Below are positions 8,331 through 31,752 of a DNA stretch of 64,000 bases, one piece after another (the first letter of the stretch is position 1; every line of letters starts with the position of its first letter). Position numbers and translations under genes: made by a program. Location of the stretch: positions 1,798,001 through 1,862,000 of the forward strand of contig JAGUCH010000004.1 in NCBI GenBank assembly GCA_019096065.1, read 5' to 3'. This stretch comes from Paracyclopina nana. Taxonomy: Eukaryota > Arthropoda > Copepoda > Cyclopoida > Cyclopettidae. Under the pieces are notes generated by a model, which was not told where the DNA came from, ran no database searches, and saw only the letters and a program-made list of their open reading frames with translations.

Positions 8331-8334
8331 TGTC
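8331..8334. repeat. Target-site duplication, left copy (TGTC)
   Basis: Four bases directly before the TG of the 5' LTR. The same four follow the CA of the 3' LTR. Confidence 0.9.
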
Positions 8335-9258
8335 TGATGGGCAATAAGTACATCATGTCTCTGGTGCACGTTACGACCAGAATAGGACTTGATTGGACCC
8401 CTCCAGTGGAACCTGTGGAAACCGTGGAGCCCGTGGAGCCGCCAGAAGTCCGGAAGGTTGCCCATTCACCGCTACATCACCACCTCAAAATCACAAAACC
8501 TCCTTTCTTAAAAACACCTTTTTCATCTCCTCCAACTCTCTGATTGCTGCTGCTGCTGCTACTACTTATATGAGTGAGTCTAACCTATGGCAATTCACCT
8601 GACCTTGAGTGGAGAAGCTGCTAGCCATTGTGTGGAGGAGTTGCTGGCTGCTACATAGAGAGGACCTGCAGCGGCATGATAACGGAGAGAAGCAGATGGA
8701 AGCTGATGGAACTTGCTGCAATGCATTGAGTGGAGAAGAAGGAGAAGACTCGGGGAGTTCGATGGGGGACTTCAGAGAAACAAGACATGGACCAAGTGCA
8801 CATGGCCCATTGAGTGAGCTCTGCCCTGCTATTGTCCCACCAAAGTTCTCCAAAGAGTGCTGAGGCATGAAGAAGATGGCCACAAGAATATTTACTGCAG
8901 TACTTATTTCTTTGTATTTGCTGCCATTAATTTGTGTGGTGTTAAAAGCTGAGTGAATAAGACAACCCTGTTTGACTTTGTTTGACCATAACTTGTATAG
9001 AGGTTTCCTGGGCAGTTATGCATCCTCGTCTGAGGCTGTTGAGGCCGTTGAGGACGTGGGTAGGAGGCCCAATCACTGGTCTACAGCACTGAAGCTTGCC
9101 ATGTGATGTATCTCGCCAGAGTTGGAGCACCGAGGCTGCGGCTTTGGGTCCAAGGCGGGTAGACATCCGGCCAGCACCCGGAGGCTGCGAACGGTACCGC
9201 GACCATGAAGCCGATGCTAACCATCCTAGGCTTCAGAGGGTGTGACCGTCGCACACCA
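8335..9258 (+). repeat. 5' long terminal repeat
   Basis: 924 bp, TG...CA, offset 22494 from the 3' copy with no difference seen on reading. It contains a (CTG)n tract near 8543-8560. I see no canonical AATAAA; AATAAG occurs twice, so polyadenylation may use a variant signal. ORFs of 69-105 codons inside it recur in both copies only because the DNA does. Confidence 0.95.
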
Positions 9259-10504
9259 TTTTGGAGGCCCCGGAGGGATTGAAGGCCACTCTCTCTCCTA
9301 AAGGTTTGATGACCAAAATACAATGAAGTCCCGGAAAATGTCTTGGTGTGGATCAGGATTCCTGCTCTGCGGCGCAGGTTGGGCCACACGCTGATTGCGA
9401 TCAGGGTGTGTCTAATACAGTACAAAATCCCGAAGGCTGACGAGCCGATGGGGGTCACTCCGATGGCATTTGGGCCTATGTGGTGCGTAGGCTTTAGATT
9501 CCCTTAGACCCAAATTGCGCATTGATGCCGTTGGCGGGTTGGAACTGGCGCGCGGGGAGTGCAAGAAGGTACAGGCCGTGACGTACCACCAGCCCGTTGA
9601 TGATGTCTTCCATGGACCATTGTTATGATGATGGGCCTACACAAAGTAACAATGACACTGTCTTTCCCGGAGGTGAATGCATGCGTGCAGGCTCCGCATG
9701 GCATAGCTTGGAGTATGGGTGCCATGGCAGCCGGAAAGCCAGCCAAGGTGCAGGTTGCGACCTGAGCCTCTGTTGCCTATCCACTAAGGGGCGAGTGAGC
9801 GCAAGAGTGTTGCGACACTAGTGGGTCTCGTCCGTGGGTTTGGCCACACAGATGGAAGAAGATGATGTAATTCATGGCCCCGCTGTGGGTAAACAAACCC
9901 CAAATAGGCCACGCGTGGAGCCAGCGTGGGAGCCACAAAGGAATATGCGTGTTTGGGGACCCAAAAAACTGGCTAACCTTGGACAAGATGCCGAGGGCAC
10001 AGGGAAGGTTGGCCGGCCCGCAACTCGAGGAGGAGTGGGCAACCTAAAAAATTCTTCATTCACTGAGTCGACACTGGTTGGCGAAGTGGCATACCTTTTT
10101 TGCGTAAAAAGTTGATGCACCTTTGTTTCAGAGACTTAGAAGAAAAACCCTACCACCTGTAGCACCAGTAGTGCTAAACCTTAAACCTTTCTTCATAATA
10201 CCATAAGTGAGTGTACCTGTGCGTGTGTGTGTGTGTGTTTTGTCTAGGCCGCTCATAGCCTTGACAAAAAATAAATAAACGAGCTTAGCAATTGCAACCT
10301 TTTTTCTCTGTGTCACTTGACGCGGCGTAGTAATTAGGACAAGCTTCCCTGTGCTTTGAACAGCGTATAGCTTTTAATTCGGTACTGCCGAATTTAGTAC
10401 ACACAGTAGTGTACTAAGACTAGAATATTGCGTGTGACTCCGTTGCACCTCTAAGAGATAAGAAATACTCCGTGTGACTCCGTCACTCTATTACAAGATA
10501 AGAA
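9259..10504 (+). other. Untranslated leader of the retroelement
   Basis: About 1.25 kb between the 5' LTR and gag. It holds the primer-binding site, a (GT)n run at about 10222-10238, a perfect 9-bp stem (10394-10402 with 10409-10417, six-base loop) and a duplicated 36-nt segment before the gag ATG. Short ORFs on both strands show no recognisable domain. A GTGAGT near 10207 could be a splice donor for subgenomic messages. Confidence 0.6.
9262..9280 (+). promoter_or_regulatory. Primer-binding site, tRNA-Thr-like
   Basis: Three bases after the LTR comes TGGAGGCCCCGGAGGGATT. Its complement has the layout of a tRNA 3' end: CCA, discriminator U, seven acceptor bases (CGGGGCC) and five T-stem bases. 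The acceptor and U73 fit animal tRNA-Thr; two T-stem positions differ from the vertebrate version I remember, so the amino acid is an inference. Confidence 0.7.
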
Positions 10505-10506
10505 AT
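10431..10506 (+). repeat. Two 36-nt direct repeats ending at the gag start
   Basis: Both copies begin CGTGTGACTCCGT and end AGATAAGAAAT (10431-10466 and 10471-10506). The second copy runs into the ATG of gag at 10505. This may be a translation or packaging signal, or simply a slippage duplication. Confidence 0.75.
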
Positions 10507-12715
10507 GGCTAATCAGGATTCTAGGATCGCTGGACCTACTCTGGCTGAGGAAGTTACGAAAGTAAAGGACCGATTGTTGAACCATCTTGGGATTAATGAG
10601 GACACTTTTCAAGGGTACTTATCCCAATGTAACCCGAATGGGAACAGCAGGACTGTCTTGCAAAGTTTTATGCCACACGTTGCCTACCCTGAAGCACTAG
10701 AGTTTGTCACAGTAAATCAAGCACAAATAGCAGCTGTATGGGATAGGACCCAAATAGTAATTGTCCCCAGGGAGCCAATTAGACCGTTGGATGACCATAT
10801 TAAAACAATCATCAGGACTATGCCTCTTAAAGATCCAGTAGGCCAAGTTGTAAATGTGGTTAAATATATTGATGCACTTGATCCTATTTCCTTGACAAGC
10901 ACGACATGTGCCTTATTATGCATTTGTTTTGGTCTGGATGAGTTCCTAACTCGTATTGAGGAAAAGAAAACTATGCAGCGTATCCATGAGGCCGATGGTA
11001 GTTTCCTGACTAACCAAATGCCAGGGACCCATGAAATGGTTGCGACACTGATATCCAAGAATTGGCAAAAGATACGGACCTTTGGAGATGGATTTTCTAT
11101 TGTAGCGAGGCTTTATGGCCTACAAAGCGATTATTTCCTAAATGAACCGCTTAACCTGAAGCCACAGAAAACCCCAGGCCAGAGTGTGCATTTTCCAAAC
11201 AATGAGGCGAGTAATGCTGTTCCAGATATGTCTTCGATAGCAAGTCCACCTGGGACTAACCATCACGAGTTCACTACAGGAGCTGACTTAGATGGCCAAA
11301 ATAAGTCAGTCCTAACCTCGACTAAAATGAATCCTCGTGACTTGCATAACTTGACTAATTCTATCACGCTTCCTCCAATGGAAGTTGTACATAGGATGGT
11401 ACAAAAGATGTTGTCAGGAGGCCATTTGAATATTCAGGAATTGAACACGGTAAAAGCTTACTACACAAAAATGCATGATGCGAGCACGGCAAATAAAATT
11501 ATTGCCTCTGCACAAATCACGGCTAAGCACATGGTTGGGGCAAAAGTAGAGTCTATTTTCAGTAAGAATTTAGAGAGAACCTTAAGCATAGTAGATGCTG
11601 CAACGAAGGAAAGAATGGTGCCGGAAACTGACGTCATCTATGATGAGTCTGCTCCAATTGCAGAGAGGCTTAAGTTAATTAACACTGATGAGATTAAGGA
11701 TGTGGAATCAGCCCGACGAGTAATCCTTCAGATGGTTGACCCAAACTTATCCTCAGGAAAGAAAATGATTGAGATGCAGAAGCTCTTTAGTGTACTTAGC
11801 ACAAGGGACGAGTTTACTTCTCTCCAAAAGCAAATATTGGCAGAGGGCTACTTAAAGACTCCTGAGATAAGTGTAGCCGCTGGAGTATCAGCTGACACTT
11901 CTAGGAGCATTTATGATCCGACCACCATGAGAGGTTACATTGCTGTACCTACGAATGGTCATGTTAAGTATGCAAGCTCACAGTCAATGAAGGAGATTAG
12001 GCACAAATACACTAAAAAGTTTGACCTACATAGTTCCTCATTAACTGCTGAGAATATAATAAATTTTTTGGACTATTTGGCAAACGAGGCTGGCAGACAG
12101 CATTGGTCTCATGCAGCCTTGTTAACAGCTATGTGTGAGGCTTCATCCCAGAATACTAGTGAGTATTTTAAGGGGATGGCTGGAGAAGGAAAAGATGGTA
12201 TGGAATTGCTATGGCAAGATATCTTTAATTACACGCAGTTTGTACGTAAAGAGGACCCATACTTCCTCATTCAGGAGATGATCCGGAAGCCTACTGAGTG
12301 CTTCACTGCCACACTTAAGTCAATCCTTCGACTACGAATGAAGATACATAGCACAACCATTGGTGATGGCGGAGATGCTCATGCAGTTTCTGAAGCCATC
12401 TCTGATGGTTTTGCACTCCTAGGACGTCATTGGCCTCAGAATTACCAGTCGTTAGTAAACAAATACAACGACTATCTGCTGAGAGCAAATATACCTGCTA
12501 GGAGTTTGCACGCCTACAACATCATGATGAACCTAATTGGTAGTGACCTAGGTACTTATGTGCCAAGGGACCTGGATAGGGCTTATAAAGAGGAGAGGCT
12601 GCCAATGGTACCCAATATGCGTGCCAAACCTAGAATTGCTATGGTTGAAGCTACTGAAGAAGAGGTGTTAGAAAGTGCTAGCACTATGTCGGCAGCCTCT
12701 GGCCGTAGTCAATGA
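10505..12715 (+). CDS. gag: Gag (matrix/capsid part) of the retroelement
   Basis: 736 codons from an ATG that overlaps the end of a duplicated leader motif. No enzyme motif is present. The position directly after the leader, the size, and a helical, tryptophan-containing region at about residues 500-700 (FNYTQF, MIRKP, LGRHWPQNYQ) fit a capsid. The N-terminal 200 residues could be matrix-like. It ends in CAA UGA, and the same frame then stays open for 117 more codons that encode zinc knuckles. A readthrough product would therefore be a normal Gag with nucleocapsid. The protein should assemble the particle and bind genomic RNA only when the extension is made. No nucleotide sign of decay. Confidence 0.85.
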   Translation: MANQDSRIAGPTLAEEVTKVKDRLLNHLGINEDTFQGYLSQCNPNGNSRTVLQSFMPHVAYPEALEFVTVNQAQIAAVWDRTQIVIVPREPIRPLDDHIKTIIRTMPLKDPVGQVVNVVKYIDALDPISLTSTTCALLCICFGLDEFLTRIEEKKTMQRIHEADGSFLTNQMPGTHEMVATLISKNWQKIRTFGDGFSIVARLYGLQSDYFLNEPLNLKPQKTPGQSVHFPNNEASNAVPDMSSIASPPGTNHHEFTTGADLDGQNKSVLTSTKMNPRDLHNLTNSITLPPMEVVHRMVQKMLSGGHLNIQELNTVKAYYTKMHDASTANKIIASAQITAKHMVGAKVESIFSKNLERTLSIVDAATKERMVPETDVIYDESAPIAERLKLINTDEIKDVESARRVILQMVDPNLSSGKKMIEMQKLFSVLSTRDEFTSLQKQILAEGYLKTPEISVAAGVSADTSRSIYDPTTMRGYIAVPTNGHVKYASSQSMKEIRHKYTKKFDLHSSSLTAENIINFLDYLANEAGRQHWSHAALLTAMCEASSQNTSEYFKGMAGEGKDGMELLWQDIFNYTQFVRKEDPYFLIQEMIRKPTECFTATLKSILRLRMKIHSTTIGDGGDAHAVSEAISDGFALLGRHWPQNYQSLVNKYNDYLLRANIPARSLHAYNIMMNLIGSDLGTYVPRDLDRAYKEERLPMVPNMRAKPRIAMVEATEEEVLESASTMSAASGRSQ

Positions 12716-13069
12716 AGTGCTAAAATAATAAATGAGCTACAAAGCGAGTTGGCTCGAGCAAATTTTGAATTGAGTAGGCAAGCTGTTGAAGTAGCTATGA
12801 TGAAAGCTGAATCTCCATCCGAGAAAATAAACAGGCTGGGAAAAACTTTTAACATAGATACGTCTAAGTTACCTGAAGGAAACCCTCTTCAGACTGGTGG
12901 GTGCTTGTTCTGCAACCAATTGCATTACGCTACACAGTGTACGAATTATCCGAACACAAATTTGACCTCGATTAGAAACGATGGTACATTGTGCCCATTG
13001 TGTAAAGGATTGCACCTTGAGTTTAGGGGAGAACAGTGTTGGAAGACACGACCTGCTCGTAAACAATAA
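12716..13069 (+). CDS. Nucleocapsid-like zinc-knuckle ORF, in frame with gag after a UGA
   Basis: The reading frame of gag continues without another stop from the codon after UGA to 13069. The region is basic and carries CLFCNQLHYATQC (CX2CX3HX4C) and CPLCKGLH...C (CX2CX3HX7C), spaced like BEL/Pao zinc knuckles rather than the retroviral CX2CX4HX4C. The likely function is nucleic-acid binding in the particle. It could be made by UGA readthrough or from the in-frame ATG at 12797, which still covers both knuckles. Its stop overlaps the next ORF's start as TAATG. Confidence 0.75.
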   Translation, partial: SAKIINELQSELARANFELSRQAVEVAMMKAESPSEKINRLGKTFNIDTSKLPEGNPLQTGGCLFCNQLHYATQCTNYPNTNLTSIRNDGTLCPLCKGLHLEFRGEQCWKTRPARKQ

Positions 13070-15003
13070 TGGGACCAAGTACAAAAAATCCCAATAAGAA
13101 TGATAAAGACAGTTACATCTTGCCTTCATTTATGAGGGGAGAATGTAACAAAGAAGTAGGACGAGCTTACTTTGATTATTTAAAGGAGCAATCTGTAAAA
13201 AATGCTGAAATTATGACTCGTGGAAGTGAGGACGAAAAGGCTCTGGTCCTTGCAATAAGGGGTAGAAAAAGTCTGTTTGTTCCTCAGCATACTATGACTG
13301 TGATTGAGATTAGCATAATACTGATTGCAATAACGATATGTCAATATTGCTTATTTGGATGGAATTATTGGCCAATTACAGTAATCTGTAGTGGAGCAAT
13401 AATAGCTTTATGGTACTACTTTGTAAAAGGTAGCACGAATGATGAGCAAAAAACTTGTAGTAATGATGGTATCGTTACACATCTGGCCTCAGTAAATGCT
13501 AATGAGGCAGAGCCAGTAACACATTTTGAACCTTTACCGAATCCGGAACTTGAAGATGACATGCTGAGTATATACTCATTAAAACTACATAATGTTTGTG
13601 AAAGATATTTTATACCAGTGGAGATAACTGGAAAAATACGTTTGCATGCTTTATTTGACAGTGGAGCAATGGTGCAGATAATATCACGCACCCTTGTAAA
13701 ACTGATCGAAGACAAAATTGGTTACACTCTGCCTCGGGTCGAAACTAATTATGTAATAAAGAACTTTAATGGGGAAGAATTCCCAGGGAATGAAGCTGTC
13801 TCTATTCAAGTTGCATTTGGAAATCGTGTTTTAATCAGACAGGCTGTTTTCCTTGTATCTGATTGCGATACACTATTAATGATAGGAAACTCGTTATTAG
13901 TGGACAATAATGTCCGGATGACTAGTAAAGATGGAAAGCACTTTATGGATTTCCCTGGAAAATCTAAACATAAGAAAATTCCACTCTTACTATCAAAAGA
14001 GGCTTTCTACCCAGTGGCAATAAATGAAGGGATCACTCTGCTCCCTGGAGAAGAAGTGACCACCATGGCTAGTTTACCTCATGATTTACCTGTCATCAGT
14101 AATGACATTCAAATAGATACTGACTCTGACGAAGATGACGAACTTGGTCGTACTCATCACCAGAAAAATGTTTATTCTGGATTGGTGGATAAGTACTTAA
14201 ACTTTATGCCTAGTAACGAGTACCGCGGAGTGACCTCTGAGGGGGCACTTACTGCAGTCACTCGTAAAGGTACATTCCCAGTAAATATTGGGAATAATAC
14301 TGAGGATCCCATCTACTTAAATGCACATGCAGTGATTGGGCGAGCCAGGATTGTCAAGAAACAGAAATTTAAGAGTACGGTTGCAGCCCATGTGGCTAAC
14401 ATTAGTTTAAAAGCCCTGGAGCATGAAATGGAGTCATGTTATTGCAATTATTTAGATTCGCACGTAATCGTGCAGTTTACTGATATAAATGGTCTTTCCT
14501 TTACTGATATGCATGTTTTCAATGCCTATGAGCCACTAAGGGGAAGTCACAAGCCTTTGATTAGTAGAAAAGGAAATTACGTCTTTATCTCATCTAACCA
14601 AAGTGATGGTTACGAGGAGATAACTGATGTAATAATTAGCAAGTTTATGAAACGAGAAAAATGGGATGAATTACCGTGGGCTGTTATTGTTCCAGGACAT
14701 AAACTTTTGTCTGGTGAACAAAAGCGCATTGTAATAAAGATGAATATGATGGTGGATAAACTTAAAGTAGTATGGCTAAAATATAAGTATATTTGCCCAC
14801 CATGTATGACCATTGCTTTGTGCCCTATTGAATCCTACCTCACTGGGATGGATAGGGTCATAATAACTATGATGATACATGAGTATGAGAATTACCCACT
14901 TGCTTATCAAAGAAATGAACTAGATAAGTATTTTGAACTAAATGTCTTTGGAGCTCATGGTATCATGTCCCTAGCGAACATGCAGAGAATGTTGGCTACT
15001 TAA
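13069..15003 (+). CDS. Protease ORF with N-terminal membrane segments
   Basis: 644 codons, starting at an ATG that overlaps the upstream stop (TAATG) in a different frame. Residues about 75-120 form two hydrophobic stretches (around EISIILIAITICQYCLF and VICSGAIIALWYYFV). An aspartic protease core follows: FDSGA at about residue 196-200, with LLMIGNSLL later as the flap-distal ILG-like element. The remaining 350 residues have no motif I recognise. A retroelement protease tethered to membrane is unusual. The stop is eight bases before the pol ATG; the pol frame is also open upstream from 14937, so a -1 shift is possible as well as reinitiation. Confidence 0.75.
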   Translation: MGPSTKNPNKNDKDSYILPSFMRGECNKEVGRAYFDYLKEQSVKNAEIMTRGSEDEKALVLAIRGRKSLFVPQHTMTVIEISIILIAITICQYCLFGWNYWPITVICSGAIIALWYYFVKGSTNDEQKTCSNDGIVTHLASVNANEAEPVTHFEPLPNPELEDDMLSIYSLKLHNVCERYFIPVEITGKIRLHALFDSGAMVQIISRTLVKLIEDKIGYTLPRVETNYVIKNFNGEEFPGNEAVSIQVAFGNRVLIRQAVFLVSDCDTLLMIGNSLLVDNNVRMTSKDGKHFMDFPGKSKHKKIPLLLSKEAFYPVAINEGITLLPGEEVTTMASLPHDLPVISNDIQIDTDSDEDDELGRTHHQKNVYSGLVDKYLNFMPSNEYRGVTSEGALTAVTRKGTFPVNIGNNTEDPIYLNAHAVIGRARIVKKQKFKSTVAAHVANISLKALEHEMESCYCNYLDSHVIVQFTDINGLSFTDMHVFNAYEPLRGSHKPLISRKGNYVFISSNQSDGYEEITDVIISKFMKREKWDELPWAVIVPGHKLLSGEQKRIVIKMNMMVDKLKVVWLKYKYICPPCMTIALCPIESYLTGMDRVIITMMIHEYENYPLAYQRNELDKYFELNVFGAHGIMSLANMQRMLAT

Positions 15004-15011
15004 CCACGCTT

Positions 15012-18000
15012 ATGTACATAATGATTGGTCAATTACGGTACCAAAATGTGGCTGACGATGTGTGGATTAGAACACTTATGGATGGTGACGTACATGTAGG
15101 TGACCCACTATGTATGGCAACCACTGCTGCATTGCTAGTGTTATCTGGGTTACAAATGTACCCTGATGACCTTACCAAAGAGGATATAAAGACAAAATTT
15201 GGTAAATTTATACCATTTGTACTTGAACCACCGGGTTGCTCATGCAAACCTTGCTTGGCAAAGAACATGGGCATCAAAGTGCCACTTAAAAGCTTCACTA
15301 CTATTTATGAAGGTCCTATTGTTGATACCAGTGTCAGACAAACAGTTCTAAAAAGTCCTTCTGAACTGGACCTTGTATCAGCTAGCCTGGAGCTTTCTAA
15401 GGATGAGAGAAATAACCAAAAACTATATGATGAGGTTTATAATCTCCTTTTGAAATTTCCAAGTGAATTTGACCCTCTCCGTGTTTTGAATGGAGTGGCA
15501 GGTTATACATTTCCATTAAAACCGGAAACGATCTTGAACATGGATTTGGAACACATTCCGGATGAAGTTAGGGAGGACTTTAGGGACCTCTTATTGGAAT
15601 ATAAGACTATCTTCTCTGAAGATCCTAGATCTTATAGGCTATGGAATGTCGAACCGATGAAGTTCCAGCTAAAGGATGATAAGCCCTTGGTGCCAAAAGT
15701 ATTCAACATGTCAGAGTATGAAACTACCCAGGTTGACCGTAAAATAGCTTTAATGCTGTCATCTGGATTAATTGAGATTGTGGATAAGTCACTTAATAGG
15801 TACTCGGCCTGCCCTTGTTTCTTGACTTCAAGGCCAAATGATGAAAAGCTGCCTATGAAGCAACGCAAGCCTCGGCTATTAGTTGACTTAACATCTTTTA
15901 ATAAAAATCTGATATTTACGACTTCGGAGCACATAGTGCCGCCTATCCCTACCTTGCTAGGGATGTTATCTAATTCATGTTTGATGTCATCTTTCGATGT
16001 AACATCCGGATACGATAACTTACCTGTGGACTCTGATAGTGCTGATATGTGCTGCTTTGCAGTAACGTCCCCTCGCAGTATATATAGATCAGTCTTTTTA
16101 AAAAGTAAGTCATGCCTACAAGGGATCGCCATTGCTCCGAGAATGTTCGCAGAGCTCCTCCAACAGGCCCTTAACCCTGAGATATTGCCCTTTACATGTG
16201 TATATGTAGACGATTTGGTCGTGGCCTGTAAGAACCCTGGCAAGCCTAGGCCTGCTACATTGGATGATTACATACGACATTTAGGTGATTTGAGGAAGTT
16301 GTTTCAAAGCCTCAAGGACTTAAATGCCCTATTACAAATTAAAAAGACCCAATTAGGTGTTAAAGAAGCTACAGTCTTAGGGCACCTAATATCTATTGAT
16401 GAAAATGGGATTATGACTATGCGAATGCCCGATAAATTCAGGTCTGCATTTGATGATTTCCCTATTCCTACAACCAAGAAACAGCTGCAAAAGTTTATTG
16501 GGATGACAAACTGGTTAAGCCAGTATTGCCCTAATATGGCTACATACACAGCTCCACTGCTAGATGTATTACAAACAGCACAAGGAAAAACAGGAAAGTT
16601 CACCTTCACTGCTTTCCAAGAAAAATGTTTCTATAAAGTAATAGACGAGATTAAAACAGGTATGTCGCTGGCATTGCCACGTTTTAAAGAAGGTTATCTA
16701 GTGGTTGATTCTGGGGTAATAAGTACCTCGGCATTATTAATGGAGGTAAATGAGGATGGTAAAGCTGTGTGTGTTGGTGCACACAGCGCACGCTTTCCTC
16801 TATCGGTTTGCCTCTCATACCACTCATTTCAACGTGAAGCATTAGGAGTTTTAACAATGATAAACCATTTTAAAAGCATACTATTCGCCTATGAGCGGTT
16901 GGTAATAGTTACTGATTGCTTATCTATCGCTAGCGTACTTGCTAGTTCTTTTACTGGTAAAGATGCGTTTACCCATAGACTAGCAGCCCGTATATATTCC
17001 TTGCCAGTTGCATGGAAACTGAGAGCGGTACCTCGCACAGAGGTAGAAGTAGTAGATGTATTACTAAATAAATACCATCAAACACCAGAAGGTGAAACTG
17101 TATTTTATGCGCCCTACTCTATTGCGGGACAGATTACGAAGGATATTTATTCAAATAAATACCCTCTGCCTGATGCGATCAAAGATAAGGTACTTACGAC
17201 ACAGGAATTACTTACACACGTGTATGATACACTTGTGAATTCTGGGACTATGAGAAAGACTCTACTCCAGAAAAGGTTGCATTGCTTGAATGATAAATGG
17301 GTAGATATGATCGGCACGAAACCTCCATTTATACATGACGACACGTCAACCTTACTCCATGCGAAACATGATGATGAGGAATTCCTTGAGGAAGAGATAC
17401 TTTCAAAAATATCTCACTCATTTCATGGTGAAGCTGATTTTGATTCACCAGTAAATCATATAGAAAATAACTTAAGAGTAGATACAGTAACTGTTAAACG
17501 GCGAATATCGCCACATTTACCAGGAATTACACGCAACCTACTCATTAAGTTGCAACAGAATTGTGAAGAGACACAAAAAATAATAAATCTAATTATGCTT
17601 TCGCCTCCGGAGAAAGTACCACTAGATGTTGCAGTAAAGTACCGTGTCCTTGACGGTGCCTTGTTGGTCATTCGCAAGAATGTAAAGTTACCTTTTAGTG
17701 TTGCGACCAATACGAAAGTATATATGAGTATGCCCAACTGTGTGTACCTTATGGCATGTATACATTTGTTGCATAACCATTTGGGGAGTAAAAAGACCAA
17801 CACTCTTTTTACCCAATCCATGTATTCGACTTACTCAGCCAGGATCAGTCGTATTATTATTGGTGCGTGCATGCATTGTGCTCTATACCGCCAAGCTAAT
17901 ACTAGGTTTGTTGGGAAGGGGCGTTTCCGCATCCCGACTCAACCATGGGAATTGGTAATGATTGATTTGGCCAAGTTCGATGAAACTTTAGTCAAAGGGT

Positions 18001-21035: not shown

Positions 21036-21068
21036 AGATTCGTAAGAAAGGACGTGATGACGGTAATC

Positions 21069-22204: not shown

Positions 22205-23264
22205 CTTGGAAAGATCTTGAAAAAATCTCAGAAGAACTTAGGAAAAATGCCCACCCTCCGACATGAGGAATGAGCATTAATAAAAAATGACTATGAAGTA
22301 AAACTGTTCAGTCATGGAAATGATAGCAATATCATAGTAGTACATGCCACGAAATAAAAACTCGGGTGCAGCGACTACTGTGCCTATAATATCAGAGTGT
22401 CTCGACCATGACCTGGTTCGAACAGCAGGCCTGGTCGTGGCGCCTCCGGACTTTGAGTAGGATGGAACATGGAAATCTGTACAAAAATGGGATTCATCTC
22501 CCTAAGAAGGGATCTTGAAATACTAAGTACAGCTTTGTGCCTGGGCGAATAATCAGCCCAAACTATGGTCTTCTTGCCTCAACAAAATGTGGGGACCCAC
22601 TCTCTATTGGAATGGGCCGCTCCCTTGTGGCTACTAAAGACAACAAAAAACCTATATGCTGGTGAACTCATCAGCTTTGGATACAACTGGGGTATCTTGG
22701 AGGTGAACAAGTGTTTCCCCATAAAATACCATTTTACATTTCATTTGCCCAACAGTCTATTGTGAAAATAAAGTTCAATATGTGCCGCGTTTCTCTTCTT
22801 ACTATGGCACGATTTAGTTTATTGATATCATGGATGGTGCCCACGGGCGCCATCGTTTAAATAAAATTGAATAAAATTAGCCTAGCCGCTAAGATCTTTT
22901 ATAGTTTAAGATTCGAAAACATACTTACCTGAATTTTGTGTGACTGCTCACTGCAGTTCCCACAAAATGCAGAAAATTGTGGAGGGGGGGAGTATATATA
23001 CGTAGCCGCAGGAAATGCAGCCTGCGCCCCAAAAAAATTTCACAAAATTTGAGCGCCCTCGTGCTCTGAGAAAGTATTGTAAACAAAATTTCTAGATAAA
23101 ACTGGAAATGGCAAACTGCCGTGAACCTATAAATCTGAATGCTAGCACATAAATGTCGCAAAATCTGCTTCATATATTATTATTAGTGCTAACCGAAATT
23201 AGCTGAAAAGATCGGTGCTGATAACCTCAATCTTTTAAATCAATTTCGGTTAAGAGCACCCGAA

Positions 23265-24415
23265 CTTGATGCACGCATCAAGACCGAGCTGGAATGCAGA
23301 GCTATAATAGCTATGCAAGTCAGTGATAACAGATAAAACATAATCTATGAGTCTGTTCAAAATGGCTAGACAAAAAACATTTGAGCAAGATAGACTGAAA
23401 TGTGAGTTGCATTGCGCAAAGACGCTGAGCCAGCTTTTGTCGAACAGATACCCGACTCCAAGGGGGGCAAAAAGTTGTTATGGAACAAAAATCCAGAGAC
23501 GCTCCCACACTAGAAAAATCCAGTTTGAGCGGCTTCGCTTGGAGATGGAGAATGGTGGCGCCACCATGCGCCTAACCACGAACCAAAAACGTTTTGCCCA
23601 AGGCTAAAACGAACAATGAAGATTGGAACCGCCGGTGCACCTACAATTCACCTGGGAAGGTTTTTGAACCTAACTAAACTCAAAAATGGCCATACTCGGC
23701 TCGAGTGGTGACTCAAATTCCGGGATTTATTATGCGGGTACAAGGAATAAAATAAAACGTTGCATAAAAGTCAAGAGAATGAAAATGACTAATGTTATAA
23801 TGATACCGCTAATGATCGCCAGATGGACCAACAGATGAAAAGGTTCAAAGTGCACAAAGATTAGGCATATTGTTAAATAAAATAAGTGCTGAAATATGGC
23901 TGTCTTGCAGCAGCCACATGACTCCCCTCTTTTTTAGTGGAGAATTTGAGTTACGCTAAACACAGCACTAGCAAAACAAGCTAGGTCAGCACAAAATGTA
24001 GACTGACATGTGAGAAAATGAAAAATACACGTTTTCTAGCCTGATATGGAAAAGAATATTGTGCCATTGCCTAGTGCTTGAGCTTGCTTTTGCTATGTGC
24101 AATGACATACGGCCGGTTTTCCAGTCCTGTAGGGATGATACGAATCCCAAGCCACCTTCAAGGCCTAGCTGGAATGCGGGACAATTTCCCTTGCATCAAG
24201 GCTGAGCCGGAATGTCAAAGGAAAAAATGCTGCAAATTAGCATTGGTAGCCCATAAGCACCAACGCTCAGCCGGTAGTAATCGCAGACACTCAAATAATG
24301 GTGATGCACCAAGCCCGAGCTGGAATGCAGGGCTATAGTAAACGCTGTTCTTGAACATTGAAGCATCGTTTGCAGTGTCAAGACCGTCAAGGCCGAGCTG
24401 GAATGCTAGCTTATT
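23265..24415. repeat. Dispersed motif CAAGnCCGAGCTGGAATGC, five copies
   Basis: Copies lie at about 23278-23311, 24157-24180, 24194-24219, 24307-24340 and 24386-24415, all in the same orientation, sharing (G)AGC(T/C)GGAATG. The first follows an 8-bp inverted repeat (23265-23272 with 23275-23282). The fourth can fold AGCCC with GGGCT across the motif. Spacing is irregular, so these are not a simple tandem array. They could be protein- or RNA-binding sites. Confidence 0.65.
23347..23607 (+). CDS. Possible small basic protein
   Basis: 86 codons, rich in Lys and Arg (KMARQKTF, KIQRRSHTRKIQFERLRLE), between the hairpin array and the repeated motif. No family is recognised and no promoter or splice support was seen. 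It could be a chance ORF. A small basic nuclear protein would be typical of complex retroviruses, but that is speculation. Confidence 0.2.
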   Translation: MSLFKMARQKTFEQDRLKCELHCAKTLSQLLSNRYPTPRGAKSCYGTKIQRRSHTRKIQFERLRLEMENGGATMRLTTNQKRFAQG

Positions 24416-24702
24416 TACAGGCCCGAATCTGTGGATTTGGGCCGCTAATGATTCGCTAATGATTAATTATGCAATTAAAATGCAATTCTTGACACCTGAG
24501 ATATGGTCTATGGTCCTTTTGGCCATGTAATGTAAACAATTGGATTCGAAATGTACTTGGCTATGATAATGAACTGCTGAACTCGACTAAAATGGTTCTG
24601 ATCTTCCTACTGAGTTGGATAAGGCTGAGCTATCTACTGAGGTAAACGCGAAATGAGTTGCGGCAAACACAGTAGACACAAAAAGTACTATGTACGTGGA
24701 CT

Positions 24703-24708
24703 TTTATT
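24703..24708 (-). terminator. AATAAA poly(A) signal, antisense
   Basis: TTTATT on the plus strand, downstream of the antisense 128-aa gene and its probable 3' noncoding exon (starting 24809). Confidence 0.5.
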
Positions 24709-24871
24709 CCCGTTTGGGAGGCCTCCTGGCTGGTGGGGGCGGGCTGGCCTTGGGCCACGTTGGGGCCAGCCCTGGCCGGTGCGGTGGCCTACCGGGAACA
24801 CGACGATTTCTGCAAAAGATAAGATGAATATAGTGAAGCTGTGATGGCTTAAGTGAATAAGTTAGACTTAC

Positions 24872-25410
24872 TAGACGACCCCCTCCATGGGGTCCTCCTC
24901 CGCCACGAATAGGCGGAGGACCCACGCTGACACGCAGGGGAGGTCCTGGGGCTCATCCCAGAGCCGGCTCACGAGCCGGTAGAGGCCCCGGGGCCTCGCC
25001 TGGTGGACCCAGGCCAGAGCAGGCAGGGCCACCAAGTAATAGGTGGCCGCCCCTGCCACGTTCAGGGCCACGCCCTAGAGGATCTCTTCGGCTTGCAATA
25101 CGAGAAAAAGTCGAGCTCTCGAGCTTTGACCAAATAGATAACGAATAATGCACTTACGAAGCCCTGAACGGGGCAGGGAGGGCACTCCTCGTTGCCCAAA
25201 GGGGCTGCGGGCGGGGCCGCAGGTGGCTGGGGCCACCCGGCCGCGGACTCGGCCGCGGGGGGCGCCCCTACGGGAGCCTCGGTGGCTGGCGCCACCGTTG
25301 TGGTAGTAGGATTCTACATTCCCAATGAAAAGATACAGTTTTACGAAAGGATTCAACGGATTTTATTCGAAATAAAAACTTACGAACAAGCCGTGAAGGA
25401 AGCCCGCCAT
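24872..25410 (-). CDS. Antisense spliced gene inside the retroelement, 128-aa protein
   Basis: Minus-strand exons 25410-25384, 25313-25158 and 25074-24872 join in phase 0 at both introns (donors GTAAGT, acceptors TAG). The start has a good context (AACATGG). The last exon ends in a further GTAAGT donor with a plausible acceptor before 24809. Whether or not that intron is removed, the next codon is a stop (TAG unspliced, TAA spliced). The protein has a Pro/Ala-rich middle (APVGAPPAAESAAGW), a CPPC motif and a hydrophobic stretch (VAGAATYYLVALPALAWV). The region is far richer in G and C than the rest of the element. No homology is recognised. Gene reality rests on splice-phase consistency only. 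Confidence 0.5.
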
Positions 25411-25585
25411 GTTTTGGACTTTTTAGTAAACAAGGCGCGCTACCAGAAAAATCCGGTCTGAAATCGGCCGAATTTCGCGTAAAAAAGCCTCTTTTTATTA
25501 CGCGCCTCTACGTAAAGTCTGGGAGCGCTGTCTGATGAAGGTAACGGCTTCGCTAATACCTGCTACCCCACTTGAATTCGAATTC

Positions 25586-25591
25586 TTTATT
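25586..25591 (-). terminator. AATAAA poly(A) signal, antisense
   Basis: TTTATT on the plus strand, about 300 nt beyond the stop of the antisense 304-aa gene. Confidence 0.5.
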
Positions 25592-25887
25592 ACATATATA
25601 TAGAATACAAGTACTATAGTATATACTCGAGTATATTGGAAGCTTTGAGATCAAAATAAAAACAAGACGAGTGCAAATGCAAAAAGCCGGCTTTAAAAAG
25701 TATGCGAGGCCTCGAAAAGTCTGCGAGTCCTTGGAAAAGTGGAAAAGTCCGCGAAGACTGCGGAAAGTGTGAGTTTAAAAGTGATAAGCTGCACGCGATG
25801 GACAAAGTGCGAAAAGTTACAGAAAACGCGCTTAAATACGTGCGAAAAGAGAGCGTTCTTCGTCTTGCAATAAGTTTGTGGCGATCC

Positions 25888-26937
25888 TTAGTTGGCATCG
25901 CTGTTGACGTCTTGGGAAGCCTTTGATCCAGCTGAATCCTGGTCCTCATCTGCGATTGAGAGAGGTTCAGCCTCATTGACTTCGTCTTTGTCCGGAATGG
26001 ACTCTGCTGCCGAATCCAAGCGACGGTTATCTCGGGCTCGAGCCCGGCGAGATCGTCTCTTCAAAGTCCGCGGCCCGCACCCTTCAGTAACAGGTACCTG
26101 AAAAGGTGCATGAAAAAGAGTACATGAGTAGCCTGCTTACAGTTCATAAATTGATAGGTCCTTACCCAGCCCTTGGGATTAGGGACGTCATAGATGTGGG
26201 CCAGCCCTGACATGATGCTGGGGTTCCGGCGTAGTGTCCCATAGGGGTCCATGGCAGCCATTGCCATTTGGAGCGAATGGACATCAGGGTCACGCATAGT
26301 CGGGGCTGGTGGCAAAGCTCGGACCTCTGGTGTACAGCAGTGAAATACCGCTGCATGCTCAGATGGGGCCTTTGTTGGAAGCATTTGCATGGCTCCACTG
26401 GCAGCCGCTGACTCCGTACGAATAGCTCGAAACGTGGCCACGAACCTATGGCACCATCGTGATGTCCACATGCAGAAGTACACCAACATGCCAAGCAAAA
26501 TCTGTAAGGAAGAGGTGGTAAATAAAATTTGGCCATAGTTGCAAAACTAGCCATAAGGTTGAACTTACCAAAGCCATCCCAATGGAGGCTCCAAGACCGA
26601 TCCATCCCATTACACCGTATCGGTGATAATTGAAAACCTCATCGATCCAGTCCCTCTGAGGGGCAATGGGATGATAACCATTTGGTACCGCTGGCATTAA
26701 ATCTCGGGGGTCAAACACCTCCACTTCAAAGGGATCGACAGGAGCTGGGTCAAATCCAGGTCCACCCTCAGCTTCAGAAATGCCACTCTCAGGAATAGCA
26801 ACATTAGGACCTACTGGGCCCGTGGTTTGAGAATCCACAAGCGCAGGATCCACTGTTGATGACTGGATTGGAACCTCCGTGGGAGCCTCTGCAGAGCTGC
26901 CCTCTGGAGTTAGAGAAATCCAGGCTAAAGTGACCAT
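25888..26937 (-). CDS. Antisense spliced gene inside the retroelement, 304-aa single-pass membrane protein
   Basis: Minus-strand exons 26937-26569, 26501-26166 and 26097-25888 join in phase 0 (introns of 67 and 68 nt, GTAAG donors, pyrimidine-rich acceptors). The ATG at 26937 has a strong context; the same frame is open further upstream to 27066 without another ATG. The first 100 residues are acidic and Pro-rich. A membrane segment spans the first splice junction (VMGWIGLGASIGMAL then ILLGMLVYFCMW). About 150 cytoplasmic or luminal residues follow, ending with a basic patch (LKRRSRRARARDNRR) and an acidic tail. No family is recognised. Splicing that exactly preserves a membrane helix argues that this is a real gene. 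It may be an accessory or receptor-like protein of the element. Confidence 0.65.
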
Positions 26938-27066
26938 CGCGAGTTGATTGGGATTGGAATATCTCGAGAAAAGTGACCAGCTTGGACGAAGTCCGATGGG
27001 AGAATGATTAACAATAAGTGAAAGCTGAGAGTTGCAACTGCCTGTTGCACCCTCGCTACGTCTCAC

Positions 27067-27301
27067 GACCTAGGAAGTCAAAAATGTCCGTGCAACTCGA
27101 CGATGAGCGTGCGCGCACGCGCCCATCTTATAAAGAAGTGGTATAAGTCCTGTTAACTTGTTCTTTTTTACCTAGACAAAAAATGACCTTGGGTTTTTTA
27201 AAAGGGACAACCCACGCATTTAAATGCCCGAGAGTGTGGGGCATACCTGTAAAGATGCGTATAAAAAGGGCAGTTTACGGCCTTACAGCAACAGTCTGGA
27301 A
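27067..27301. promoter_or_regulatory. Probable divergent promoter region
   Basis: Lies between the antisense 304-aa gene and the 458-aa gene. TATAAAG at 27129-27135 reads as TATA on both strands; TATAAAAA at 27260-27267 lies about 40 nt before the in-frame ATG at 27302. These would drive transcription independently of the LTR. Inferred from motifs only. Confidence 0.45.
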
Positions 27302-28600
27302 ATGAGCGATAGCTTGAATAGCCTCGATAACCTAAGGATGTCTCTGATCACCGAATCCATGGAAGGAGAATCTGCATTGGTCTCTATGATGGAGACTGAT
27401 AAGACTGGAGAGTTCAACGAGCAAGAGGTTAGTGAGCTCCTAAAGGATGATGAGCCAGTTATGGATCGCAACATGCCTGCTGTCAATATTGAGAACCAAG
27501 CCCAGAATCAGACGACTAGGCACCAGGACCAAGAGGAACCCCTCGAGGTCCCATTGGAAAGGGTATCCTCCAGTTTGGGGTACCCATTGCCATTTGAGGA
27601 TTTGATCAGGCCTCCCCACATGGAGGGGCTACAGGCCTATGCGAGGGAGGCGAGCCGGACCAGAGCTACTTTACAACAGCATTATGATGCAAGCCTGTTG
27701 AAGATAGCCACGAAGGAGGTCATGACCGTTGGAAAGGAGGTGCCCTTCGACCTGACGATTCGGATAAATGGAGAACCCTATGAACGGACTGAGGCCCGTA
27801 GGCCATTGAAGGTGAAAAACTTCGATTGCATTGAATTGATTATCGAGCCAGTGAGTAAAGGTGGGGAGATTCCCGATTTCCTTGTTATATTTCCGATGCT
27901 AGACAATCTACCAGTCTACAATTTGCCTGACAAGATGGAATATGACGAGAATGTCCATAAGTTGGCCAATGTCAGAAGTTGGTCTGCCGTCCAGAGCCCA
28001 ACAGCTGTTGGGTATTATGTTCATGGAATCCGTGGACAGGGTGGAGCTCAACTCCCTGTAGTAGTCTCCAAACATTATACCAAGCGAGGCTGCATTCAGA
28101 TCATGCCAACATTGGACTCATCATTTTGGGATCCACGGATGTTCCATGATTTGACGTCACCTTACTTGCAACTGTATGTGGGACCGCCGTCCTGCCTTAA
28201 CAATGGTGTGGCTCAAGCCCCACGAAAATTGGACGTGAAGATCGATATGACCGCACTCCTGCCTACCATGGTAGCCCAGTTTGTTGATCGAGCCATTGGA
28301 ACGTATCCGCAATGCGTGAGGTACACCGCCGGGGCCAGGCCCCAAAAACTAGCCGCGTTTGTGGAGAAGTCTTGGCAACAAAAACCAAGGCGAGGACCTA
28401 GATTGTACGCCGATGTAGCGCGCGGGCGCCCTTTTGGCGCAGGAACGAATGGACCAGACATATTGCACGCTAAGCGCTCCAAAGTCGATAAGAATAAGGA
28501 GCGTGTGAACTATCTCCTCCAGACTAAAATGGAGGAAATGACCCCCAGCGACATCAAGGTATTCACTGAGGCGATTAATGGATTTGTCGGGCAGTTCTGA
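27224..28600 (+). CDS. Unknown 458-aa protein of the retroelement
   Basis: Open from ATG 27224 (an alternative start at 27302, giving 432 aa, fits the closer TATA box). There is no signal peptide or membrane segment. The first 130 residues are acidic and probably disordered. Residues about 150-380 look like a folded domain rich in beta-type patterns (VPFDLTIRINGEPYERTEAR, GEIPDFLVIFPML). The C-terminus is basic (RSKVDKNKERVNYLL) then helical. An AATAAA lies 103 nt after the stop, so this may be a self-contained transcription unit. I do not recognise the family. By position (between pol and env) it could be a regulatory or structural accessory protein. Confidence 0.7.
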   Translation: MPESVGHTCKDAYKKGSLRPYSNSLEMSDSLNSLDNLRMSLITESMEGESALVSMMETDKTGEFNEQEVSELLKDDEPVMDRNMPAVNIENQAQNQTTRHQDQEEPLEVPLERVSSSLGYPLPFEDLIRPPHMEGLQAYAREASRTRATLQQHYDASLLKIATKEVMTVGKEVPFDLTIRINGEPYERTEARRPLKVKNFDCIELIIEPVSKGGEIPDFLVIFPMLDNLPVYNLPDKMEYDENVHKLANVRSWSAVQSPTAVGYYVHGIRGQGGAQLPVVVSKHYTKRGCIQIMPTLDSSFWDPRMFHDLTSPYLQLYVGPPSCLNNGVAQAPRKLDVKIDMTALLPTMVAQFVDRAIGTYPQCVRYTAGARPQKLAAFVEKSWQQKPRRGPRLYADVARGRPFGAGTNGPDILHAKRSKVDKNKERVNYLLQTKMEEMTPSDIKVFTEAINGFVGQF

Positions 28601-28702
28601 AAAATGAAATTACCCTTCAAAATCGAATTGTACATATTGATAAAATACTTGGTTGTGGGCCAATACTCTTAATTTTTACCATACATGTCGACATGCTATG
28701 AT

Positions 28703-28708
28703 AATAAA
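28703..28708 (+). terminator. AATAAA poly(A) signal after the 458-aa ORF
   Basis: Located 103 nt past the stop codon and 120 nt before the envelope-like ORF. Confidence 0.5.
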
Positions 28709-28825
28709 AACCAATGGCAAAAAGCAAAGAGTGTCTAGACATAGCAAGGTGGCGTGCCCACACTTGTCTGGGCTTATAAGGAAAGTTAGCGGTCTTGGGG
28801 CCCATATAGTTTCTGATCAGAAGTT

Positions 28826-30724
28826 GTGCTGGTAAGATGTCGTGTGAATTGGTCTTTATTCTCACCCTTTTTGGGATCTGGCACTTGGGGCCTGTCCAAC
28901 TACCCAAATACTCAGTTCGTACTGGATGAGGCACTTTGCCATTCCGGACATGCCCTAGTTCCAGTTAGAGTGGTCCACCACCCTAAAATGGTAAAAAAGG
29001 CTATGGTGTTAGACACGAAGGATTACAGTGGCCTTTTGCAATCAACGATTGGCGTCCTGAATAATATTGACACTGTGGTACAAGAAGTTAAGGACACTGT
29101 GGACTTGGTCCATATTGGGAATATGTTGGCAGTTGGCGAAGAAAGTACTCCTAACGCCATCGACAAAGCTTGTTCCAAACGCCAAGGGTTTGTACCACTT
29201 GAACTTAAAACCAAAGAAGACATGGACGTTTTTCTAGAATTATTACGTTATACTGCCAAGGAAAGCCCCCTCGCTACTAAGGTAACTCTATGTGTGAAAT
29301 TTCGACTTGTCAATGAGGTACCTATGTCCTTGGATGGAAAAATCACATTTCCCCAAGTTGGGTATGAGAAAAAACCGGACGATCAGATTATTGCAGGTTA
29401 CCCGTGTATCACGGGGTATTTCACTGTGGGACAAGGGCAAAAGACTATGACTTCAGTTAAAGCCCATGCGCCACACAGTGATGGGAAGGCGACGATGTGT
29501 GTCCAAAACGACTTTGTCATCACCCATAAGGACTTTGTCAAATCTGAATTGTCTGGAAGGAAAAGCTTCCTTGAAAAGGCCTACAACGCCGTGATGGCCT
29601 TAGCAGAATCAGGTAAATCGACAAAATTCACTGACGGTATGGTAGCAAATACCACCCCACTGAAAGTTCCACCGAAAGTTTCTTTGGCCTTCCGACTACT
29701 AAAAGGTTTTAGCAAGGTCTTTTTGAAGTCTGGGTTAATACCGAATGATCTGCAGCAAGTATTATCATATGCTGACACAGTTGTGCAATTTGCCAGAAAG
29801 TTTGGACAGGCAGGCGCACGGTTCAGCATACCTACTCTGGCGCATAATAGTGACAGGAATGCGGCCACCATTACAAATGTTTATGAACCTTTGGCGAACA
29901 CTGAGCAGAGTGGAGATTTTGTCACTCAGGGAATAGTTGGGTATAAGGAAATGGACCCTACCCCTGAGGTCACATATCATATTGTGTCACGAAGCAAAAA
30001 CGGATTCTTGTTGCATGATAGGTATTTGACCCGCCGAAGTGATCTAGTGTTTGTGTCTCGGGAAATACCCACCTATAGTGATTGCTTCGTTCATGACCAT
30101 AATTTAACCGTGTGTGAAAACAAGGACTTTGACTTGACAGAAGGAGTCCAACACTGTGCTAAAGTACTTTTAGGGCTAGCGCTGGGTGACCCATTTGACG
30201 CCTGTGAATTGGAGCCACTTAAAACTAACACGCTCACTGATGTGGGATGTGCAAATTATAAAGGGTTCTTAAATTTGGTCTCAAGTGCAATGATTAATAG
30301 GACTTGTTTAAATGACTTCAAGAACTCGATGGTATTGGAACCAGGGTCCTACCAGATCCTTAGCAATTGTAAGGTTTCCCTTGGAACTCAAAGTACTGGA
30401 TACGAGGACTCTCCTTGGGAAAGTGATATGGTGAAGTTCTTTACAAAATTCCCTGAAGATGAACTTGGAGGTTTATTCAATAATTGGGAAATAATCCTGA
30501 CGGTGAGCCTATTGTCTGCAGCACTGGGATTCACGTGTATGGGCATATTGATTTGGAAAAGGCGGCGAGTATGCAGCCGATGTTATGATGATGGAGGCTA
30601 TGTGAGACCTAATACGTCCCGCTCACGGCTTCGCTACAATAGAGGAGATCGCAAGAAAGATGCTGACCAAAATCAGCGCCTTACTGTGCGAATGAGTGGC
30701 CTGGGAGGCGCGACGTTAGTATAA
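28826..30724 (+). CDS. env: Envelope-like glycoprotein ORF of the retroelement
   Basis: Up to 633 codons open. The sole strong membrane segment is near the C-terminus (EIILTVSLLSAALGFTCMGILIW, about residues 555-577), followed by a basic cytoplasmic tail of about 60 residues. Many cysteines and NxT/S sites lie in the ectodomain. It is the last ORF before the purine tract, the usual place of env. No ATG opens the frame before 28988; the upstream part starts at GTG. A hydrophobic signal-like reading begins at an ATG at 28837 in a different frame, and a GTAAGA donor (28832) and a TACTCAG acceptor (about 28914) flank it. The true 5' end is therefore unresolved: spliced leader, short intron, or a one-base lesion. 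I could not assign it to a known fusion-protein class. Confidence 0.65.
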   Translation: MLVRCRVNWSLFSPFLGSGTWGLSNYPNTQFVLDEALCHSGHALVPVRVVHHPKMVKKAMVLDTKDYSGLLQSTIGVLNNIDTVVQEVKDTVDLVHIGNMLAVGEESTPNAIDKACSKRQGFVPLELKTKEDMDVFLELLRYTAKESPLATKVTLCVKFRLVNEVPMSLDGKITFPQVGYEKKPDDQIIAGYPCITGYFTVGQGQKTMTSVKAHAPHSDGKATMCVQNDFVITHKDFVKSELSGRKSFLEKAYNAVMALAESGKSTKFTDGMVANTTPLKVPPKVSLAFRLLKGFSKVFLKSGLIPNDLQQVLSYADTVVQFARKFGQAGARFSIPTLAHNSDRNAATITNVYEPLANTEQSGDFVTQGIVGYKEMDPTPEVTYHIVSRSKNGFLLHDRYLTRRSDLVFVSREIPTYSDCFVHDHNLTVCENKDFDLTEGVQHCAKVLLGLALGDPFDACELEPLKTNTLTDVGCANYKGFLNLVSSAMINRTCLNDFKNSMVLEPGSYQILSNCKVSLGTQSTGYEDSPWESDMVKFFTKFPEDELGGLFNNWEIILTVSLLSAALGFTCMGILIWKRRRVCSRCYDDGGYVRPNTSRSRLRYNRGDRKKDADQNQRLTVRMSGLGGATLV

Positions 30725-30816
30725 TAACTGTATCAACCTTAATGTGATGTAAGCGATCAATGACACCTTTTTTATATTTTTAGAGCTTAAAAAATATTTC
30801 AAAAGCTGAAAAAGTT

Positions 30817-30828
30817 AGGGCCGGGGAA
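30817..30828 (+). promoter_or_regulatory. Polypurine tract
   Basis: AGGGCCGGGGAA immediately before the 3' LTR, the usual primer for plus-strand DNA synthesis. It is interrupted by two cytosines. Confidence 0.75.
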
Positions 30829-31752
30829 TGATGGGCAATAAGTACATCATGTCTCTGGTGCACGTTACGACCAGAATAGGACTTGATTGGACCCCTCCAG
30901 TGGAACCTGTGGAAACCGTGGAGCCCGTGGAGCCGCCAGAAGTCCGGAAGGTTGCCCATTCACCGCTACATCACCACCTCAAAATCACAAAACCTCCTTT
31001 CTTAAAAACACCTTTTTCATCTCCTCCAACTCTCTGATTGCTGCTGCTGCTGCTACTACTTATATGAGTGAGTCTAACCTATGGCAATTCACCTGACCTT
31101 GAGTGGAGAAGCTGCTAGCCATTGTGTGGAGGAGTTGCTGGCTGCTACATAGAGAGGACCTGCAGCGGCATGATAACGGAGAGAAGCAGATGGAAGCTGA
31201 TGGAACTTGCTGCAATGCATTGAGTGGAGAAGAAGGAGAAGACTCGGGGAGTTCGATGGGGGACTTCAGAGAAACAAGACATGGACCAAGTGCACATGGC
31301 CCATTGAGTGAGCTCTGCCCTGCTATTGTCCCACCAAAGTTCTCCAAAGAGTGCTGAGGCATGAAGAAGATGGCCACAAGAATATTTACTGCAGTACTTA
31401 TTTCTTTGTATTTGCTGCCATTAATTTGTGTGGTGTTAAAAGCTGAGTGAATAAGACAACCCTGTTTGACTTTGTTTGACCATAACTTGTATAGAGGTTT
31501 CCTGGGCAGTTATGCATCCTCGTCTGAGGCTGTTGAGGCCGTTGAGGACGTGGGTAGGAGGCCCAATCACTGGTCTACAGCACTGAAGCTTGCCATGTGA
31601 TGTATCTCGCCAGAGTTGGAGCACCGAGGCTGCGGCTTTGGGTCCAAGGCGGGTAGACATCCGGCCAGCACCCGGAGGCTGCGAACGGTACCGCGACCAT
31701 GAAGCCGATGCTAACCATCCTAGGCTTCAGAGGGTGTGACCGTCGCACACCA
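30829..31752 (+). repeat. 3' long terminal repeat
   Basis: 924 bp, matches 8335-9258 base for base as far as I could read, and ends CA before the TGTC duplication. Confidence 0.95.

What the first reader, a model, noticed from the sequence alone, without database searches (positions are those of the whole stretch)
8335..31752. A 23.4 kb, apparently intact and recent endogenous-retrovirus-like element
Identical 924-bp LTRs, a perfect 4-bp target duplication, an intact primer-binding site and purine tract, and long open gag, pro, pol and env-like frames. It is over twice the size of usual Ty3/Gypsy or BEL/Pao elements because of about 10 kb of extra sequence with its own genes. Known giant LTR elements (e.g. 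Ogre in plants, Burro in planarians) exist, but I know of no description of one with this gene plan.
Basis: partly seen in the sequence, partly recalled or inferred. Interest (0 to 1): 0.92.

Follow-up and report, generated by a model that had tools for sequence, protein, structure and literature searches.

The report
Giant retrovirus-like element with antisense genes
This is one recent but damaged copy of a 23-kb retrovirus-like element present in dozens of copies in an animal genome, and besides gag, pol and an envelope-like gene its family keeps an orphan gene and two apparently spliced genes on the opposite strand, an unusual gene plan for such an element.

Summary
The element is real. LTRs of 924 bp are identical, with a 4-bp target duplication TGTC. 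It is not an assembly join: 10 of 10 other LTR pairs fetched from the same 92-Mb genome have 4-bp duplications, 9 with no mismatch, one with one. It is not intact: against the relatives sampled, this copy has a gag stop, a ~37-bp deletion splitting pro-pol, and an env start out of frame. The extra ~10 kb is family-wide and holds ORF458 and an env-like gene, both under purifying selection. AS1 has three exons, with GT-AG introns in 18 of 18 elements checked and the same plan in one copy of a second family. AS2 recurs in the second family and weakly in a third set of places. Both look like membrane proteins. No RNA data were available. Domain order is Ty3/gypsy-like, but the reverse transcriptase is too divergent to place. 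Env and ORF458 found no relatives; a p53-like fold for ORF458 is only a lead from a poor model. Best label: new variant of giant env-bearing LTR element.

The parts
8331..8334 (.). 4-bp target-site duplication TGTC, left copy
8335..9258 (+). 5' LTR, 924 bp, identical to the 3' LTR
9259..9278 (+). conserved stretch after the LTR, presumed primer-binding site; tRNA not identified
   Evidence: same 20 bases in 11 of 11 elements
10505..13069 (+). gag frame; in this copy interrupted by TGA at 12713-12715
   Evidence: two A copies and one B copy are open through that place
12902..13039 (+). two Cys/His zinc-finger-like motifs of gag (C-x2-C-x3-H-x4-C and C-x2-C-x3-H-x6-C)
   Evidence: sequence
13067..13071 (+). 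TAATG: gag stop overlapping the pro-pol ATG
   Evidence: same in the window, two A copies and one B copy
13069..21035 (+). pro-pol; in this copy split by a ~37-bp deletion near 14.99 kb into frames 13063-15003 and 14937-21035
13297..13422 (+). hydrophobic hairpin (two putative membrane segments) ahead of the protease
   Evidence: hydropathy, coordinates; a B copy has a hydrophobic stretch at the same place with little sequence identity (by eye)
13645..13668 (+). protease active-site motif region (DSG)
16203..16214 (+). reverse-transcriptase YVDD
17955..18278 (+). integrase catalytic core, D-D(39)-E
20286..20660 (+). C-terminal pol extension with two similar arginine-rich motifs, function unknown
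   Evidence: no Pfam match for 18801-21032 at E <= 0.5
21036..24860 (.). spacer present across the A family, no homology to the part of B compared
24871..25074 (-). AS2 exon 2 with its stop: 67 codons, hydrophobic segment then basic tail
   Evidence: 61% identity to B over 69 aa, E 2.2e-28; N/S 0.14; 80 matches, 78 without a stop
25075..25157 (-). AS2 proposed intron (GTAAGT...CTCTAG); acceptor choice uncertain
25158..25313 (-). AS2 upstream exon, Ala/Pro/Thr-rich; 5' limit unknown
   Evidence: N/S 0.17 against 1.4 and 5.1 in the other two frames
25888..26097 (-). AS1 exon 3, arginine-rich then acidic, with stop
26098..26165 (-). AS1 intron 2, 68 nt, GT-AG
26166..26501 (-). AS1 exon 2, membrane segment and basic stop-transfer then tail
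   Evidence: N/S 0.14; 59 matched places, none with a stop
26502..26568 (-). AS1 intron 1, 67 nt, GT-AG, splits the membrane segment
26569..26937 (-). AS1 exon 1, Ser/Thr/Pro/acidic ectodomain-like; the ATG is tentative
   Evidence: 29.7% identity to B over 111 aa, E 3e-6
27224..28600 (+). ORF458: acidic N-terminus, beta-rich core, basic C-terminus; orphan
   Evidence: pN/pS 0.056 over 10 copies
28837..30724 (+). env-like gene; signal-peptide ATG out of frame with the body in this copy
30485..30556 (+). env transmembrane segment
30817..30828 (+). purine-rich tract AGGGCCGGGGAA
   Evidence: same in 11 of 11 elements
30829..31752 (+). 3' LTR
31753..31756 (.). TGTC target-site duplication, right copy

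Best explanation
A recently inserted, now defective copy of a large endogenous-retrovirus-like LTR element with Ty3-type enzymes. Shown by sequence: matching LTRs and target duplication; gag; protease, reverse transcriptase, RNase H and integrase in that order; two further sense genes (ORF458, env-like) under purifying selection; and two antisense gene candidates whose reading frames and splice signals are kept. Inferred: the sense genomic RNA runs from LTR to LTR and makes Gag; Pro-Pol follows by stop-start reinitiation at TAATG or by a -1 frameshift, and is tethered to membrane by its N-terminal hairpin; ORF458 is a nuclear regulator of the element's own RNA or transcription; Env and the two antisense products go to the membrane, Env for transfer between cells and the antisense products as accessory surface proteins. 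The antisense introns can persist through reverse transcription because the genomic RNA carries their complement, which is not a splice substrate; sense introns would be lost from copies made from spliced RNA.
For: LTRs and duplications; domain order; best PDB sequence match Ty3 RT, E 1.5e-21; env pN/pS 0.098 over 30 copies, ORF458 0.056 over 10; AS1 GT-AG in 18 of 18 distinct elements (19 rows, L040 and L058 being the same element), frames open in 14 of 18, N/S 0.34, 0.14 and 0.26 in the three exons against 1.0-3.8 in the other antisense frames, binomial p 1e-13 over the three exons; the same three-exon, two-intron plan read in one B copy; AS1 exon 2 without a stop at 59 of 59 matched places; AS2 exon 2 61% identical between A and B, N/S 0.14, p 3e-10 with its upstream exon, open at 78 of 80 matched places; AATAAA 84 and 92 nt after the B AS1 stop, and 163 (A) and 141 nt (B) after AS2; TAATG in 4 of 4 junctions.
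Against: No RNA or protein evidence. Nucleotide divergence in AS1 exon 1 (0.035) and exon 3 (0.050) is no lower than in the introns (0.030, 0.043); the case rests on the silent-to-replacement pattern. AS1 exon 1 aligns weakly between families and its start codon and signal peptide are unclear. In A the first AATAAA after AS1 is 297 nt away. AS2's acceptor is uncertain: an earlier AG would give a short, stopped product, and other frames of the same stretch also match B, at lower scores (60-70 against 88 bits). The RT could not be placed. Env found no known fusion protein.
Confidence: 0.72

Rival explanations
1. The antisense frames are by-products of a constrained sense-strand or RNA feature and make no protein.
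For: The AS2 stretch is conserved at DNA level (76% over 240 bp) and several frames match between families. No transcripts are known.
Against: Replacement changes are depleted in one antisense frame of five exons and not in the other two antisense frames of those exons; stops are absent from 59 of 59 AS1 exon 2 places and 78 of 80 AS2 places; the plan recurs in B with a TM and a basic tail despite low identity.
Confidence: 0.12
2. A plain env-bearing Ty3/gypsy retrotransposon that carries captured host genes as passengers.
For: LTR elements elsewhere capture ORFs (passages of PMC6431247, PMC5408684).
Against: ORF458, env and AS2 are shared by two families whose pol is 81% identical and are under purifying selection; the scored matches of AS1 and AS2 fall in clusters that I take to be elements, but not every place was checked.
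Confidence: 0.1
3. A BEL/Pao element, or an independent retrovirus-like lineage between known groups.
For: Gag zinc-finger spacing resembles what I recall of BEL/Pao; RT branch length 3.06 and identity of 26% at most; integrase D-D(39)-E.
Against: No BEL/Pao-specific Pfam family in the pol frames at E <= 0.1; best sequence match Ty3.
Confidence: 0.2

Closest known systems
Burro giant gypsy-like elements of planarians (passages of PMC6431247)
   Same: Over 20 kb, Ty3-like enzymes, env-like region, extra coding capacity, invertebrate host
   Different: Burro puts extra domains in one huge polyprotein with env between gag and pol; here ORF458 and env are separate frames downstream of pol and two genes are antisense
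Plant Retand/Grande/RIRE2 elements with antisense ORFs between pol and 3' LTR (passages of PMC11963269 and PMC7264820)
   Same: Long pol-to-3'LTR region with conserved antisense ORFs
   Different: Those mostly encode a TRP28 domain thought to bind DNA; here the products look like membrane proteins, carry introns, and an env-like gene is present
HTLV-1 HBZ and HIV-1 ASP (passages of PMC10186651)
   Same: Antisense genes in a retrovirus; HBZ has a spliced form; ASP is hydrophobic and membrane-associated
   Different: HBZ is a bZIP nuclear protein; ASP lies inside env; here two separate multi-exon genes lie upstream of ORF458 and env
Bdelloid rotifer LTR elements with diverse ORF3 (passages of PMC5408684)
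   Same: Retrovirus-like LTR elements with varied extra ORFs, some with membrane segments
   Different: The passages seen describe ORF3 downstream of pol and no antisense gene
Cer1 of C. elegans with CERV (abstract and outline of PMC10309623)
   Same: Ty3-related animal element with an extra nuclear protein; CERV exports genomic RNA, a possible model for ORF458
   Different: No sequence relation was tested

Membership tests
LTR retroelement | Matching LTRs and short target duplication | tested here: met
Ty3/gypsy (Metaviridae) | Order protease-RT-RNase H-integrase | tested here: met
   protease, RNase H and integrase below Pfam cut-offs
Ty3/gypsy (Metaviridae) | RT inside the Ty3/gypsy clade | tested here: inconclusive
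   six-sequence tree, window branch 3.06, no supported position; best PDB match Ty3
Ty3/gypsy (Metaviridae) | tRNA primer complementary to the primer-binding site | not tested
   search not answered five times
BEL/Pao | BEL/Pao-specific pol families | tested here: not met
   none listed at E <= 0.1 for the pol frames
Endogenous retrovirus with envelope | Env with signal peptide and C-terminal membrane anchor | tested here: met
   signal peptide in frame in other copies, not in this one
Endogenous retrovirus with envelope | Homology to a known fusion protein | tested here: inconclusive
   no Pfam, PDB-sequence or database relative (one chance-like PDB match at E 0.019, DUF1265 at E 0.14 in 3 of 8 members); model pLDDT 39, viral fold search without a match at E <= 0.001
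p53 family (ORF458) | p53 DNA-binding-domain fold | tested here: inconclusive
p53 family (ORF458) | Sequence homology to p53 | tested here: not met
   no Pfam match; profile comparison with a host p53 piece, probability 0.1%
Giant LTR element | Total length over 20 kb | tested here: met
   23,418 bp, 8335-31752

The most novel reading that the evidence does not exclude
An animal retrovirus-like lineage with a two-strand gene plan: the genomic strand makes Gag, a membrane-tethered Pro-Pol, a p53-fold DNA-binding regulator and Env, while the opposite strand carries a module of intron-bearing surface-protein genes kept through reverse transcription because their introns are invisible in genomic RNA.
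Probability: 0.2. Interest if true: 0.9.

Novelty: new variant of a known kind. Interest (0 to 1): 0.74.

Why it matters
It would show that an animal LTR element can keep spliced genes on its antisense strand, with a simple reason why their introns survive. A recently active family in a compact chromosome-scale genome would make antisense gene expression, membrane-anchored Pol and stop-start translation testable. It also warns that identical LTRs and long frames do not mean an intact element.

Tried and rejected
Rejected: assembly join; intact copy; the antisense ORF 26449-27069 as a single continuous gene. Most copies have a TAG in that frame, which I first took as evidence against coding; it lies upstream of the ATG or inside the intron. 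My first join of AS1 exon 1 to the 24.9-25.1 kb exon was wrong and was replaced by the three-exon model.

Led nowhere: homologues of env in the large protein database (7993 scored, none); five distant pol relatives of 22-26% identity (7992 scored); host identity (Na/K-ATPase piece: two unnamed proteins, 63% and 43%; COX1 not found); Rfam (no match at E <= 0.5); structure of env (pLDDT 39) and ORF458 (pLDDT 45). Nothing was detected between A and B in the upstream spacer at the thresholds used, apart from DNA matches at the AS2 stretch. Primer tRNA search did not complete.

Literature: ten searches; their listings showed no animal LTR element with spliced antisense membrane-protein genes, but the library lacks most subscription journals.

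Full report
The observation. The two LTRs are identical over 924 bp and flanked by TGTC. Ten further LTR pairs were fetched out of the pairs visible (40 matches, 127 candidates): 10 of 10 have a 4-bp duplication, 9 pairs have no mismatch and one has one, while each differs from the window LTR at 19-23 positions. So the family has moved recently in several lineages, and the element is not an assembly join.

The window copy is damaged. Gag stops at 12713-12715, pro-pol lacks about 37 bp near 14.99 kb, and the env signal peptide is out of frame, while the relatives sampled are continuous there. Copies open at these places exist.

Family. The env frame has 71 matches (69 of 125 candidates scored): 40 near-full-length places at 87-100% identity, 37 without a stop, and 12 at 43-45%, 10 without a stop, called family B. 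Two further places are intermediate (66-67%). ORF458 has 96 matches (92 of 111 candidates scored), B at 46-49%. The RT-integrase piece has 41 matches (40 of 547 candidates scored): 34 A-type at 96-100%, five B at 81%, one intermediate copy in two pieces. Counts are lower bounds. Pol is thus much better conserved between A and B than env and ORF458, whether from faster evolution or exchange.

Sense genes. Env pN/pS is 0.098 (30 copies, 435 pairs) and ORF458 0.056 (10 copies, 45 pairs); between A and B silent sites are saturated (pS 0.79-0.80, pN 0.38-0.39). Env has a membrane anchor near its C-terminus and, in the other copies printed, a signal peptide. Env and ORF458 found no relatives by sequence. 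The gag stop overlaps the pro-pol ATG as TAATG in the window, two A copies and one B copy. Pro-pol has a hydrophobic hairpin ahead of the protease, and the B copy has a hydrophobic stretch at the same place (by eye).

Antisense genes. The most conserved part of the compared spacer is 26.2-26.9 kb. On the minus strand it fits a three-exon gene, AS1: 26937-26569, 26501-26166, 26097-25888, with introns of 67 and 68 nt. All 19 rows (18 distinct elements) keep GT-AG; frames are open in 14 of 18. Replacement-to-silent ratios are 0.34, 0.14 and 0.26 in this frame against 1.0-3.8 in the other antisense frames. The B copy shows, read, the same plan: ectodomain-like exon, intron in the membrane segment, a second intron, a basic third exon. 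Exon 2 matches 59 places, none with a stop. Against this, exons 1 and 3 are no less divergent than the introns at nucleotide level, and the start codon is tentative. AS2 (25313-25158 and 25074-24871) has ratios 0.17 and 0.14 (ten copies), is 61% identical to B over 69 aa, and is open at 78 of 80 matched places, including 15 at 57-67% and 7 at 41-43%, the last perhaps a third family. Its acceptor is uncertain. Polyadenylation signals follow AS2 in A and B and AS1 in B at 84-163 nt; in A the nearest after AS1 is 297 nt away.

Placement. Domain order and the best PDB match are Ty3-like, but a six-sequence RT tree left the window on a branch of 3.06 without a supported position. The zinc-finger spacing reminds me of BEL/Pao from memory, yet no BEL/Pao Pfam family was found.

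How it most likely works is given under Best explanation; transcription, translation, membrane location and function are inferred. The point about antisense introns follows from the replication cycle of LTR elements.

Known relatives. Plant Retand-type elements carry antisense ORFs between pol and the 3' LTR (passages of PMC11963269 and PMC7264820); HTLV-1 HBZ and HIV-1 ASP are antisense retroviral genes (passages of PMC10186651); Burro elements are giant and env-bearing (passages of PMC6431247). None of the passages seen combines giant size, env and spliced antisense membrane-protein genes.

Noticed in passing
window 36797-40639: Cluster of three BTB/POZ genes on the minus strand; a nearby Na/K-ATPase beta exon at 60731-61519 points to an animal host.
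   Followed up: partly
window 50178-52517: Ankyrin-repeat protein with a hydrophobic C-terminal half.
   Followed up: no
G000 C1, C2, C4, C6: The host has p53-family matches at four loci (nine matches).
   Followed up: partly
G000:C1:2620487-2649499: One LTR pair about 28 kb apart holds two copies of the spacer, suggesting an internal duplication.
   Followed up: no
window 20286-20660: The C-terminal extension of pol has two similar arginine-rich motifs.
   Followed up: no
window 30700-30721: Env ends in ATLV in both A and B sequences aligned, which resembles a PDZ-binding end (PDZ motif recalled).
   Followed up: no
G000: seven places listed: AS2-like frames at 41-43% identity suggest a third, more distant family.
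   Followed up: no
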